This document shows positions 21,971-36,436 of a stretch of 64,000 bases of DNA, one piece after another. Position 1 is the first letter of the stretch; every line of letters begins with the position of its first letter. This DNA comes from an uncultured Bacteroidota bacterium (lineage in GTDB: Bacteria > Bacteroidota > Bacteroidia > Chitinophagales > Chitinophagaceae): positions 124,001 through 188,000 of the forward strand of contig CAIVKC010000045.1 of NCBI GenBank assembly GCA_903906365.1, in the 5' to 3' direction. Under the pieces are notes generated by a model. It worked only from the letters and a program-made list of their open reading frames with translations. It made no database searches and had not been told where the DNA came from. A program made the translations under genes and the position numbers.

Positions 21971-22331
21971 CAGGCTACCGGCCCAGCCATCGATCCCCTT
22001 TGGGGGTAGGAAAGTCCGGACAGCGCAGGGCAATGCACCGGCGAATAACCGGGTGGTGCGAAAGCACCAACAGATAGTGCCACAGAAAATTACTTTCCTG
22101 TTTCGGCGGGATAAAGGTGAAAACGTGGGGTAAGAGCCCACGGTTTGGTTCAGTAATGGCCCAGACGGGTAAACCTTGCATGTTGTAATGCCACGTAAAC
22201 TAACGTCTGAGGGCGGCTCGCCCGAGTTAGAGGGTAGGCAGCTAGAGGTGCTGAGTAATCAGCATCCCAGGTAAATGATGGCATCCCCTGAAAACGGGGA
22301 CTACAGAATCCGGCTTATGCGCCGGTAGCTT
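21971..22331 (+). ncRNA. rnpB: RNase P RNA, bacterial type A
   Basis: GGAAAGTCCGGAC at 22009-22021 is the universally conserved 5' core and ACAGAATCCGGCTTA at 22303-22317 the 3' core of RNase P RNA. Helix P1 is formed by GCTACCGGC (21974-21982) and GCCGGTAGC (22321-22329), which fixes both ends. In between are the expected elements GGGCAATGCACCGGCGAATAACC, GAAAGCACCAACAGA (helix P10-P12 region) and GGTAAACCTTGC. At about 360 bases the length is normal. The RNA cuts the 5' leader from pre-tRNAs together with RnpA, which is not in this window. Confidence 0.97.
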
Positions 22332-22333
22332 TT

Positions 22334-33984: not shown

Positions 33985-34779
33985 TTACAACGGCCTGATC
34001 CAGATATTACGAAAGGATAGGGGTTCACTTTTATCGCCATGCGCCTGCAATTTGATGGGGCAGGGACCATGGACCTTATAATAGGGTTTGCCGATATAGC
34101 GCGTCTGGCCCTGCAGTTCAAAATTGTTTTGAACCAGCACCCCATTATGGAAGGCTGTCACGTGGGCTGGTGTCCTGACCGATCCATCTTCATTGAAGCG
34201 GGGTGCAGTCCATATGATATCATAGCTCTGCCATTCGCCAGGTTTACGGCAGGCATTTGCCAATGGAATACCCTGTTTGTAAATGGCGGCCGTTTGTCCG
34301 TTGACATAGGTAGTATTGTTGTAGCAATCAAGCACCTGCATTTCATAGCCATCATCGCCCGGGCCTGTGGAGGCCAGGAACACGCCGCTGTTCCCCCTTG
34401 CCTGGCCCGAACCCGTGATGTTTTCAGGAACCTTCCATTCAATATGTAACTGGTAATCCAAAAATGATTGCTTGGTGCGAATATTTCCCGCATTTTTTTC
34501 AACGGTCATTACCTGGTTGGCGACCTTCCACCTGGCTGGAGAAGTGCTGTCATTGACAGAAACCCACTGATCCAGGTTACTGCCGTCAAATAATATAATC
34601 GCATCAGAGGGGGCATCCGAACAGGTCTTCCCGGGTGTCACTATTTTAGGCACCGGACTGTATACTTCTGTGAGCTTGGGATCTCCTTCCTGGGCCTTCA
34701 GGGTCTGAAGGAATAGAAGGGCGGAAATACTTACCAGCAGAAATGTTTTCGGCAGGCTGTTGCAGGCAATTCGTTGCAT
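33985..34779 (-). CDS. DUF1080 (3-keto-disaccharide hydrolase-like) secreted protein
   Basis: The frame runs to 34887, but its first part crosses a hairpin, and MQRIACNSLPKTFLLVSISALLF at 34779 is a normal signal-peptide start; 264 residues. DAIILFDGSNLDQWVS is the classic DUF1080 opening, followed by QLHIEWKVPE, RGNSGVFLAS, YEMQVLDCYNN and the C-terminal FRNIWIRPL strand, together a concanavalin-like sandwich. Some family members hydrolyse 3-keto-glycosides made by GMC-type dehydrogenases, and a GMC enzyme is encoded at 61 kb in this window. Physical linkage is distant, so a shared pathway is only inference. Confidence 0.88.
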   Translation of the reverse strand: MQRIACNSLPKTFLLVSISALLFLQTLKAQEGDPKLTEVYSPVPKIVTPGKTCSDAPSDAIILFDGSNLDQWVSVNDSTSPARWKVANQVMTVEKNAGNIRTKQSFLDYQLHIEWKVPENITGSGQARGNSGVFLASTGPGDDGYEMQVLDCYNNTTYVNGQTAAIYKQGIPLANACRKPGEWQSYDIIWTAPRFNEDGSVRTPAHVTAFHNGVLVQNNFELQGQTRYIGKPYYKVHGPCPIKLQAHGDKSEPLSFRNIWIRPL

Positions 34780-34870
34780 GTGTAGATTTTGAAGATGATA
34801 AATAAAATAGTGAAACAATTTAGTATAAAAAACGAACATGGGGTAAAAAGGGCGCCATACGGGAAAAGAC

Positions 34871-34990
34871 AAAAAAAACCCCTTCATTTGAAGGGGAGCT
34901 TCCGTCCAGGAAAACTAACAAATATCTTTTTTTTGAAGTAGATCAGTTGTTTGGGTGATATATATGGTTTTCCCAATAAGATGCCATTTT
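34871..34990 (-). ncRNA. Candidate small RNA, copy A of a duplicated element
   Basis: On the minus strand this segment ends in CCCCTTCA (34879-34886) pairing with TGAAGGGG (34889-34896), followed by eight T residues, a strong intrinsic terminator. It matches copy B (35272-35390) through the terminator stem, CCGTCCAG, AACAAATATCT, GATCA, TATAT and TGCCATT, with homology reaching beyond 35040. A 14-codon frame (34943-34987, minus) begins ATGGCA as in copy B, but the peptides diverge, so the conserved product is more likely RNA. It ends 92 bases before the DUF1080 gene and could also act as its leader if read-through occurs. Ends are estimates. Confidence 0.55.
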
Positions 34991-35271
34991 ATAAATTATT
35001 ATAAATCAATTGTTTAATAATTATTTTCAAACCGAAAATTCCTGATTCTGGAATTTATTTCCCATTCTGCATACGGGGAGCCTTACAACCGGCTCCATCC
35101 GGCTGGGTCGATATGGGCTCGAGTGGTTTTGCAGTCCGCTGCATAGATCGCCATGCTGCTGGTGGAAAATAACACCCCTGCTGGTTGGTTCTGTAAATTA
35201 GCGGGGATAATTAGTACCCATCATCCTTTGATTACCGGTTTGCAGGCTCTCCTAACGTCAAGGGGTAGCAC

Positions 35272-35390
35272 AAAAAAAAAGCCCCTTCAGGTGAAGGGAC
35301 TCCGTCCAGAAAACCAACAAATATCTATTAAAGGGTATTGATCAATTCAAACAGGTATTTATATCAGGTCCAATTTGGTGCCATTATTCT
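35272..35390 (-). ncRNA. Candidate small RNA, copy B of a duplicated element
   Basis: On the minus strand this segment ends in the hairpin CCCTTCA / TGAAGGG (35283-35298) followed by nine T residues. It shares with copy A the block CCGTCCAG-AAAAC-AACAAATATCT and upstream homology to about 35450. Ahead of it, TTGACT (minus, 35424-35419) and CATAAT (35401-35396) are 17 bases apart, a textbook sigma-70 layout, although Bacteroidota normally use another consensus; transcription would begin near 35389. A six-codon frame starting ATGGCA (35364-35384) parallels copy A. No Rfam family was recognised by eye. Confidence 0.55.
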
Positions 35391-35450
35391 AAGTGATTAT
35401 GGCACAGGCAATTGAAAAAGTCAATTCCCGAAATTTTTTCCGGAATTTGG

Positions 35451-35740
35451 AATAATACTCCCAAAAGGAAACAATGGCCTGCCATGCCATGAGATGTTGG
35501 GTTGCTTTCCGTCCAAATAACGATAAACAGCTGAATTCGCCCATCAGGGGGATGAAGGAACCCCATGATTTTTACCGGGCATCAGTCAAATAGGTAGTTG
35601 AAAGGTAATTCTTTATGGATATGTAAAGATCGGGTAATGCACGGGTTGTTTTGGGAAGCCGGCTAGGAACTTGATGGGACAGCATTTTGGCCGAAGACTG
35701 GACTGTGCAGGGCGCAGCAAGCCCTCCTGGTTGACTTTTC
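35451..35740. other. Intergenic stretch without a recognised gene
   Basis: About 290 bases between the repeat pair and the downstream end of the membrane-protein gene. Open frames here are short and have no recognisable domain. No terminator for the membrane protein was found. Confidence 0.35.
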
Positions 35741-36436
35741 CTACAGCCTGGAGTAAGAGTTCAGGCTGCCTGGTTCCTGCAATTCGGGCTTTCCGGCAAA
35801 CATCCACAATCCCAGGGAACTGAGTAGGGTGGAAATCAGCATACTGATATAATAAATCATAAAAGTATCTTCAAAGTTGTTTTTACCTACCCCCAGGTAG
35901 CTAAACAGGTAGATCACGATGAAAATGCCATAGTCAAACAGAAAGGACCCATATACAAAGACCATGGAATTTTCCTGGGAATTATGCTCCATTTTCTGGA
36001 GGTATTCCATGACTTTCATAATGGAAAAGGCAATGGCAAAAAAAGTGCCCGCACCTATAATGATGGTGCTGGAAGTCATGTTATAACCTTTCCAGGCGAT
36101 CATACTGGCTTCAAACAATAGGAAGGCCAGCAGGGTCCAACGAATGATCTTCCGGTTTACCCCGGTGGTGGAAAACATGAAAACAAGCAGGACGACCGGG
36201 GCATCCAGCAGGTTATATAAAAGGGTAAGCTGCAGGTTCAGGGCATGATTGGTTCCAAAACCCAGCAGGGTAGGGGTATTCAAGAGTCCGTTGAGCAGCC
36301 AGTATAGGGCGGTAAATAAATAGGCTTTTTCAATTTGGAGTTTCCTATTTACAATGATTAACAGGGGAATGAAGCAACAGATGATGGCTGCATGGGAAAT
36401 GATGGAGTATAATATGGAGTATAGTCCGGTTTTCAC
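35741..36436 (-). CDS. Multi-pass membrane protein, unknown function
   Basis: A 231-residue protein with about seven membrane helices and few charged residues within them. The start MKTGLYSILYSIISHAAIICCFIPLLIIV enters the membrane at once; a positive loop NRKIIRW and an acidic loop (KMEHNSQENS) mark the topology. The C-terminal 20 residues are polar. No known family was recognised; similar lone seven-helix proteins are common in Chitinophagaceae. It is divergent from dnaG, with a strong inverted repeat in the shared promoter region. Confidence 0.72.
   Translation of the reverse strand: MKTGLYSILYSIISHAAIICCFIPLLIIVNRKLQIEKAYLFTALYWLLNGLLNTPTLLGFGTNHALNLQLTLLYNLLDAPVVLLVFMFSTTGVNRKIIRWTLLAFLLFEASMIAWKGYNMTSSTIIIGAGTFFAIAFSIMKVMEYLQKMEHNSQENSMVFVYGSFLFDYGIFIVIYLFSYLGVGKNNFEDTFMIYYISMLISTLLSSLGLWMFAGKPELQEPGSLNSYSRL

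What the first reader, a model, noticed from the sequence alone, without database searches (positions are those of the whole stretch)
34871..35450. Two paralogous small-RNA-like units with intrinsic terminators
Two copies of about 180 bases in the same orientation share many words in the same order, yet lie in a stretch without an ordinary gene. Both end on the minus strand in a hairpin (CCCCTTCA/TGAAGGG) with eight or nine T residues. The block CCGTCCAG-AAAAC-AACAAATATCT just ahead of the terminator is nearly unchanged, while the 5' parts have diverged except for ATGGCA. This pattern fits two related regulatory RNAs with a conserved seed or structure, kept after a local duplication. No known RNA family was recognised by eye.
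Basis: partly seen in the sequence, partly recalled or inferred. Interest (0 to 1): 0.72.

Follow-up and report, generated by a model that had tools for sequence, protein, structure and literature searches.

The report
Twin sigma-54-type small RNA genes
Two neighbouring stretches of non-coding DNA look like sister genes for about 90-base regulatory RNAs, each with its own activator-controlled switch, and the same kind of switch recurs before other small-RNA-like units and surface-protein genes in related bacteria.

Summary
Two paralogous minus-strand units (c1 near 34871-35053, c2 near 35272-35452) end in intrinsic terminators and carry no conserved ORF. Two same-genus genomes hold the unit at the same place, between the 231-aa gene and the DUF1080 gene; one of them has a further copy elsewhere.

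The conserved 5' "ATGGCA" is probably not an RNA seed. It is part of an element with fixed spacing in all five units: TTCC-N7-GGA[AT], 53-55 nt, then GGCAY-N4-TTNG. This looks like a sigma-54 promoter (-24/-12) with an enhancer site. Searched alone, the element gives 61 hits in 29 of 33 genus genomes (4 are units it was built from) against 4 for the reversed control. It stands before small-RNA-like units (many with TTGACGGCCATCAATAG) and before secreted-protein genes. A relaxed form hits 94 of 394 family genomes, with much chance; in one genus it heads tandem arrays of five small-RNA-like units. RpoN is present in all 33 genus genomes.

Best reading: twin, enhancer-activated sigma-54 small RNAs of about 86-90 nt, arranged like Qrr, GlmY or CrcZ, in Bacteroidota. 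Transcription, activator and targets are untested, and the -12 base departs from the canonical C. New family, known kind of control.

The parts
35039..35053 (-). c1 upstream inverted repeat TTCC-N7-GGAA (proposed enhancer-binding-protein site)
   Evidence: same element 53-55 nt before GGCA in all five units (GGAT instead of GGAA in one)
34986..35009 (-). c1 AT-rich box between enhancer site and promoter (position of the IHF-like box of other sites)
   Evidence: in 23 of 47 genus sites an IHF-like WATCAANNNNTTR with at most 1 mismatch, 20 of them 19-20 nt before GGCA; about 9% in shuffled spacers. c1 itself is a poor match by eye
34973..34986 (-). c1 proposed sigma-54 -24/-12 element TGGCATCTTATTGG
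34871..34960 (-). c1 proposed RNA, about 90 nt (start inferred from the -12 position; end = terminator T run)
   Evidence: inference from the geometry; terminator
34901..34909 (-). c1 conserved 3' core CTGGACGGA just ahead of the terminator
   Evidence: identical in all five units
34871..34896 (-). c1 intrinsic terminator: CCCCTTC / GAAGGGG stem, loop AAAT, 8 T
35438..35452 (-). c2 upstream inverted repeat TTCC-N7-GGAA (proposed enhancer site)
35370..35383 (-). c2 proposed sigma-54 -24/-12 element TGGCACCAAATTGG
35272..35357 (-). c2 proposed RNA, about 86 nt (start inferred)
   Evidence: inference from the geometry; terminator
35301..35309 (-). c2 conserved 3' core CTGGACGGA
35272..35303 (-). 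c2 intrinsic terminator and 9 T
33985..34779 (-). neighbour downstream: DUF1080 / 3-keto-disaccharide hydrolase gene (PF06439)
   Evidence: next to the unit in G256 and G262 too, and on the same fetched stretch as the 231-aa gene in five other genus genomes without a detected unit
35741..36436 (-). neighbour upstream: gene for a 231-aa protein, membrane-like by eye, no Pfam match
   Evidence: relatives in 31 of 33 genus genomes, own included

Best explanation
c1 and c2 are tandem sister genes for small regulatory RNAs. In each, an enhancer-binding activator would bind the TTCC-N7-GGAA repeat centred about 60 nt upstream of the -24 box, DNA bending at the AT-rich box between them would bring it to RNA polymerase holding sigma-54 at GGCAY-N4-TTNG, and the polymerase would make an RNA of about 86-90 nt that ends at the intrinsic terminator. 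The RNA would act in trans by pairing with mRNAs, with the conserved block before the terminator as the likely contact site. Shown by sequence: homologues, synteny, fixed promoter geometry, recurrence of the same element before other terminator-ended units and before secreted-protein genes, conserved terminators. Inferred: that sigma-54 reads the element, which activator binds it, where the RNA starts, and that the RNA works by base pairing.
For: Homologues at the same place in G256 (E 3.4e-7) and G262 (E 2.2e-4), and a further copy at G256:C6 (E 7.2e-4). Spacing from operator end to GGCA is 53, 55, 54, 53, 55 nt in the five units, while GGCA to CTGGACGGA varies from 73 to 93: this suggests a protein-bound DNA module rather than an RNA motif. 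Genus-wide the module gives 61 hits in 29 of 33 genomes, 4 of them units it was built from, against 4 for the reversed control. In 14 of the 47 an ORF of over 100 aa starts 15-76 nt past GGCA, as expected of a promoter; four of the five such proteins scanned have a T9SS sorting domain in Pfam or NCBIfam. RpoN (PF04552) is in 33 of 33 genus genomes. In the family search, which imposed TGGCAY and one G only, many sites read TTTGGCACG. In 8 of 16 GACGG-type units the next ORF is convergent, so those RNAs cannot be its leader. In Flavobacterium psychrophilum -24/-12 promoters drive exported and gliding genes and one was confirmed by mutagenesis (passages of PMC9723704).
Against: No transcript data. 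The base at the -12 C position is T 22, A 13, C 9, G 3 of 47; it is G in c1, A in c2, and C in only one of the five units, so these are poor sigma-54 -12 boxes by the consensus that I recall. T10, T11 and G13 were imposed by the genus pattern, so their conservation is not independent. The CTGGACGGA units are clear in three of 33 genus genomes only. The module was built from these units, so its two matches in the window are by construction. No shared fold beyond the terminator. No target was sought. The activator is unknown. Two genus genomes with RpoN (G261, G264) have no site in the relaxed search.
Confidence: 0.62

Rival explanations
1. Small RNAs driven by the housekeeping or another sigma factor, with an activator at TTCC-N7-GGAA; GGCA lies at the RNA 5' end and serves as a seed.
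For: c2 has TTGACT-17-CATAAT upstream; an activator centred about 60 nt upstream of the start would also give fixed spacing; the -12 base is mostly not the canonical C.
Against: That sigma-70-like match is not above chance (2 found, 2.5 expected) and I do not see it in the homologues (by eye). The Bacteroidota primary -7 box TAnnTTTG (given in PMC9723704, passage) does not fit at constant spacing (by eye). GGCAY-N4-TTNG recurs before ORFs whose other leader sequence looks unrelated, which a seed would not explain.
Confidence: 0.2
2. The units are regulated leaders (attenuators) of the downstream DUF1080 gene, made from an activated promoter and stopped at the terminator unless relieved.
For: c1 ends 91 nt before the DUF1080 start, same strand, and the same order is kept in G256 and G262.
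Against: c2 ends about 400 nt further up with its own terminator. A TTTTTATACTAAATTG-like box before DUF1080 is also seen in relatives that lack a detected unit (by eye). In 8 of 16 GACGG-type units the next ORF is convergent. No antiterminator fold was seen, though none was searched for systematically.
Confidence: 0.1
3. Short peptide genes, or decayed duplicates without function.
For: ATGGCA could begin 14- and 6-codon ORFs in c1 and c2; G256 and G262 have one copy at this place.
Against: The ATG is not conserved and no frame is kept. Operator, promoter element, 3' block and terminator all persist while the rest has diverged.
Confidence: 0.08

Closest known systems
Vibrio Qrr small RNAs (LuxO / sigma-54) (recalled; only a search listing seen)
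   Same: Multi-copy small RNA genes of about 100 nt, each with an activator site, a -24/-12 promoter and an intrinsic terminator.
   Different: No Rfam match of the window units; another phylum; tandem here; activator unknown; Hfq not examined here.
E. coli GlmY (QseF/GlrR, sigma-54)
   Same: Small RNA with an enhancer-dependent sigma-54 promoter (passages of PMC7073468). IHF sites are recalled; that text holds no mention of IHF.
   Different: Different sequence and neighbours; not a tandem pair (recalled).
Pseudomonas CrcZ / CrcX / CrcY (CbrB, sigma-54)
   Same: Family of related RNAs from RpoN-dependent promoters under one activator (passages of PMC8657755).
   Different: These RNAs sequester Hfq-Crc (same passages); no such binding sites were tested here.
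Bacteroides FopS / GibS small RNAs
   Same: Multi-copy paralogous small RNAs of Bacteroidota with a conserved single-stranded block and a terminator (passages of PMC11697453).
   Different: FopS uses the primary-sigma promoter and a 5' seed. The paper says FopS was deposited in Rfam; the window units match no Rfam family, but I did not check that release 15 holds FopS.
Flavobacterium psychrophilum sigma-54 regulon (motif SM4)
   Same: -24/-12 promoters before exported and gliding-motility genes (passages of PMC9723704).
   Different: The passages that I saw tie no small RNA to SM4 and do not mention an upstream TTCC-N7-GGAA element; the full list of its promoters was not seen.

Membership tests
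sigma-54 (RpoN)-dependent promoter | -24 element (T)TGGCAC with GG | tested here: met
   GGCAY in all sites by pattern; T before it was not imposed in the genus search and reaches at least 70% of 47 sites; TTTGGCACG in many sites of the family search (TGGCAY imposed)
sigma-54 (RpoN)-dependent promoter | -12 element with GC at fixed spacing from GG | tested here: inconclusive
   G at the right spacing (imposed by the pattern), but the next base is C in only 9 of 47; c1 G, c2 A
sigma-54 (RpoN)-dependent promoter | RpoN encoded in the genome | tested here: met
   33 of 33 genus genomes, G000 included
sigma-54 (RpoN)-dependent promoter | Upstream enhancer-like inverted repeat at set distance | tested here: met
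   53-55 nt from GGCA in the five units; 61 hits against 4 control in 33 genomes
sigma-54 (RpoN)-dependent promoter | Dependence on RpoN and an activator | not testable with these tools
   needs mutants or in vitro transcription
trans-acting bacterial small RNA | Stand-alone unit with own promoter and intrinsic terminator, no conserved ORF | tested here: met
   by sequence only:
trans-acting bacterial small RNA | Stable short transcript | not testable with these tools
   no RNA data
trans-acting bacterial small RNA | Base pairing with target mRNAs | not tested
Any Rfam family | Covariance-model score at the gathering level | tested here: not met
   no hit in the window units or their homologue loci; sub-threshold hits only
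6S RNA | Long hairpin with central bubble, conserved widely across relatives | tested here: not met
   no such common fold; the units are clear in 3 of 33 genus genomes
Transposon or prophage end | Many dispersed copies or a mobile-element context | tested here: not met
   own genome: 2 places below E = 1; viral contigs 0 with the unit pattern

The most novel reading that the evidence does not exclude
One enhancer-binding activator and sigma-54 run a family-wide RNA-and-surface regulon in these Bacteroidota: several unrelated small RNA families, some in tandem arrays of five, are switched together with T9SS-secreted proteins, exopolysaccharide genes and single-domain response regulators, so that RNA copy number tunes a change of cell surface. 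c1 and c2 are one local duplication within it.
Probability: 0.4. Interest if true: 0.75.

Novelty: new member of a known kind. Interest (0 to 1): 0.58.

Why it matters
The Bacteroidota small RNAs that I met in print were those of Bacteroides (FopS/GibS) and Flavobacterium (Rfp18). A sigma-54-type promoter signature that can be searched by pattern gives a route to find more, suggests when they are made, and links them to secreted surface proteins. It makes a direct test possible: remove one sigma factor or one activator and ask whether all units fall silent together.

Tried and rejected
Known RNA family: Rfam at gathering score gave only RNase P elsewhere in the window, and the lenient search only weak, unlike families. 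Peptide gene: rejected, start codon and frame not conserved. 6S RNA: rejected by distribution and fold. Transposon end: rejected. Housekeeping promoter: a sigma-70-like match in c2 is at chance level.

DNA search of 244 family genomes with c1 gave matches in 17 genomes at E up to 0.01, G000 among them; outside G000 they are short (20-54 nt) and I set them aside on length alone (of their loci only the first 1200 bases of L009 were looked at, short of its match). A sequence-only model (R2) over 394 family genomes gave 124 genomes at E up to 0.1; beyond G000 and G262 the best was 4.2e-4. I scanned the fetched loci L096-L132 for the CTGGACGGA core and saw no full unit among the new ones; two partial look-alikes (L111, L117) were not followed up. 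That scan missed G000:C30 (R2 E 2.61), which later proved to be a GACGG unit, as did G256:C47 (R1 E 0.056); so weak model hits can be real. R2 on 31 further genus loci: 0 hits at E up to 1. Pattern GGCA...TTNG...YTGGACGGA in 394 family genomes: 46 genomes; the hits outside G000 and G262 look like chance or coding from the printed strings; their loci were not read. CTGGACGGA followed by T6 in 33 genus genomes: 22 genomes, and outside G000, G256 and G262 I saw no unit-like hit by eye in the printed strings. Pattern scan of genome contigs: 52 stretches, of which I judged 3 true by eye (G256 twice, G262 once). Plasmids: 1 irrelevant match. GACGGCCATCAATAG over 394 family genomes: 7 genomes; the three outside the genus lack promoter and terminator by eye.

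A tree of the 231-aa protein puts the three unit-bearing genomes together (support 86/87), but the DUF1080 tree does not (3 changes) and is weakly resolved; so a single origin is likely, not proven.

Full report
What is there. On the minus strand of the window, between a gene for a 231-aa protein (35741-36436, no Pfam match) and a DUF1080 / 3-keto-disaccharide hydrolase gene (33985-34779), lie two units in the same orientation as both genes, c2 first and c1 second. Each ends in an intrinsic terminator with 9 or 8 T. In the 4.66-Mb own genome only c2 matches c1 significantly (E 2.5e-8; next 1.03). The alignment shows shared blocks from a TTCC...GGAA repeat upstream to the T run.

Homologues. 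A model of the two copies (R1) finds the unit in two other genomes of the genus: G256 (E 3.4e-7) and G262 (E 2.2e-4), both between the same two genes, and a further copy in G256 at C6 (E 7.2e-4) between other genes. By contig names and lengths these two genomes are MAGs titled Bacteroidetes bacterium (JABDAZ01 and JAFEAE01). The other R1 hits in 33 genus genomes lie at E 0.056 or worse; the best of them, G256:C47, later proved to be a unit of the sister type described below. In five relatives the two flanking genes are on one fetched stretch without a unit that R2 detects: about 95 nt apart in two, about 470 nt in one, and about 1.8 kb in two, one of which has a 518-aa ORF in between. The tree of the 231-aa protein groups the three unit-bearing genomes (86/87); the DUF1080 tree does not.

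What is conserved, and how. In c1, c2, G256a, G262 and G256b the distance from the end of TTCC-N7-GGA[AT] to GGCA is 53, 55, 54, 53 and 55 nt, whereas from GGCA to CTGGACGGA it is 76, 73, 76, 81 and 93 nt. Fixed spacing upstream and loose spacing downstream point to proteins on DNA, not to an RNA fold. GGCA is followed by Y, N4 and TTNG in all five. This is the layout of a sigma-54 promoter: -24 TGGCAY, a G twelve bases after the first G of GG, and an inverted repeat upstream for an enhancer-binding protein. That the consensus is TGGCAC-N5-TTGC, and that promoters such as glnAp2 read TTGGCAC-N4-TTCGC, I recall and took from no call.

Test of the promoter reading. The module TTCC-N7-GGAA, N40-70, GGCAY-N4-TTNG was searched alone in 33 genus genomes: 61 hits in 29 genomes, 4 of them units it was built from, against 4 hits for the pattern read backwards (totals added by me from the per-genome columns). 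In the window it occurs twice (with N50-58), in c1 and c2, by construction; 300 simulated windows gave none. In the loci held, rescanned with N50-58 and GGA[AT], 47 distinct sites have the full module, 46 of them spaced 53-56 nt. A 48th without TTNG was dropped; 46 of the 47 have GGAA, so about 15 of the 61 hits were outside that spacing range or not in the held loci; and a few of the 47 (for example L250 and L272) look like chance. Of the 47, 23 carry an IHF-like WATCAANNNNTTR with at most one mismatch, 20 of these starting 19 or 20 nt before GGCA; in shuffled spacers about 9% do. RpoN is encoded in 33 of 33. Against: the base that should be C at -12 is T 22, A 13, C 9, G 3; it is G in c1 and A in c2.

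What the element drives. Of the 47 sites, 5 are the CTGGACGGA units, 16 head units with GACGGCCATCAATAG (up to two mismatches; 12 of the 16 exact), and 26 are others. In 14 of the 47 an ORF of more than 100 aa starts 15-76 nt past GGCA. Of five such proteins scanned, three have a T9SS sorting domain above the Pfam cut-off (L277 in the own genome, L281, L294), a fourth, L309, is above the NCBIfam cut-off only, and the fifth, L310, has none. Several others among the 26 are units, some with a terminator found, upstream of a long ORF that in the one case scanned (L282) is a membrane pyrophosphatase. In 8 of the 16 GACGG units the next ORF of 120 aa or more is convergent, in 7 it is on the same strand and in 1 none was seen (a simple ORF picker). 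G256b carries both GACGGCCATCAATAG and CTGGACGGA, which ties the window units to this larger set. The own genome has one GACGG unit (C30) and one T9SS-protein site (C13) besides c1 and c2.

Beyond the genus. Of the hits whose loci were read, many outside the genus look like chance or coding. The convincing ones read TTGATTATCAAT...TTTGGCACG or close to it and stand before genes for a response regulator, a NusG-like protein (UpxY model below its cut-off), a DUF1972 glycosyltransferase and a DUF4402 protein (one of each scanned), and, in genus g32, before tandem arrays of five related, apparently terminator-ended units 330-940 nt apart (G192, G031). These arrays have no Rfam match. Two genus genomes, G261 and G264, had no hit.

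How it most likely works. An activator on TTCC-N7-GGAA and sigma-54 polymerase on the -24/-12 element would start RNA about 26 nt past GGCA, giving RNAs of about 90 (c1) and 86 (c2) nt with the conserved block UUUYCUGGACGGA just before the terminator. The 5' ATGGCA would lie outside the RNA. Action by pairing is the usual mode for such RNAs and is inferred, not shown. Confidence: real transcription units about 0.85; sigma-54 control about 0.75; trans-acting small RNA about 0.7; the whole statement 0.62.

Compared with what is known. The layout is that of Qrr (recalled; listing only), GlmY (passages) and CrcZ/CrcX (passages). In Bacteroidota the nearest parallels that I saw are the multi-copy FopS small RNAs under the primary sigma (passages) and the sigma-54 regulon of F. 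psychrophilum, which includes exported and gliding proteins (passages). The comparative sigma-54 paper PMC12316311 does not contain the words sRNA, small RNA or non-coding in its held main text (passages and word counts). A search for Chitinophaga + sRNA + sigma54 gave no paper, and in the listings of related searches I saw nothing of this kind; these cover only the held open-access library.

Verdict. The kind of control is known; the RNA families and the promoter shared with surface-protein genes appeared in nothing that I found in those searches.

Noticed in passing
L354:1018-3340 (G192:C3) and L355 (G031:C9, minus strand): Tandem arrays of five related, apparently terminator-ended units in genus g32, each with the TTCC-N7-GGAA ... 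GGCAC promoter element; recurring words such as TTTACAGAT and ATAGAGGAG by eye; no Rfam match.
   Followed up: partly
L278:2270-2460 (G000:C30), L279, L280, L282, L283, L284, L286, L288 and others: Genus-wide small-RNA-like units with GACGGCCATCAATAG (12 of 16 exact) in diverged surroundings; TTGA/TCAA could close a hairpin with a CGGCCA loop.
   Followed up: partly
L282:4809-5153; similar in L284, L286, L287, L288, L291: Units with the same promoter element, some with a terminator found, upstream of a 724-750-aa ORF; the one scanned (L282) is a membrane pyrophosphatase. Some are rich in CCTAAACCC-like words.
   Followed up: no
L277:1297-2709 (G000:C13) and L281, L292, L293, L295, L296, L305, L307, L312: ORFs of about 430-470 aa behind the same promoter element; the two of this length that were scanned (L277, L281) have a T9SS sorting domain.
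   Followed up: partly
L345, L346, L347, L352, L364, L371; L368, L330; L337: In other genera the element stands before response-regulator-like ORFs (L345 scanned), DUF1972 glycosyltransferase-like ORFs (L368 scanned) and a NusG-like ORF (L337 scanned).
   Followed up: no
window 34811-34836 (minus strand): A box like TTTTTTATACTAAATTGTTTCA before the DUF1080 gene recurs in relatives with and without the units, perhaps that gene's own promoter (by eye).
   Followed up: no
L090:2972-4528: In one relative an ORF of 518 aa lies between the 231-aa gene and the DUF1080 gene; L091 has a gap of similar length with a similar sequence by eye.
   Followed up: no
window 21974-22333 (+): RNase P RNA, bacterial class A.
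   Followed up: no
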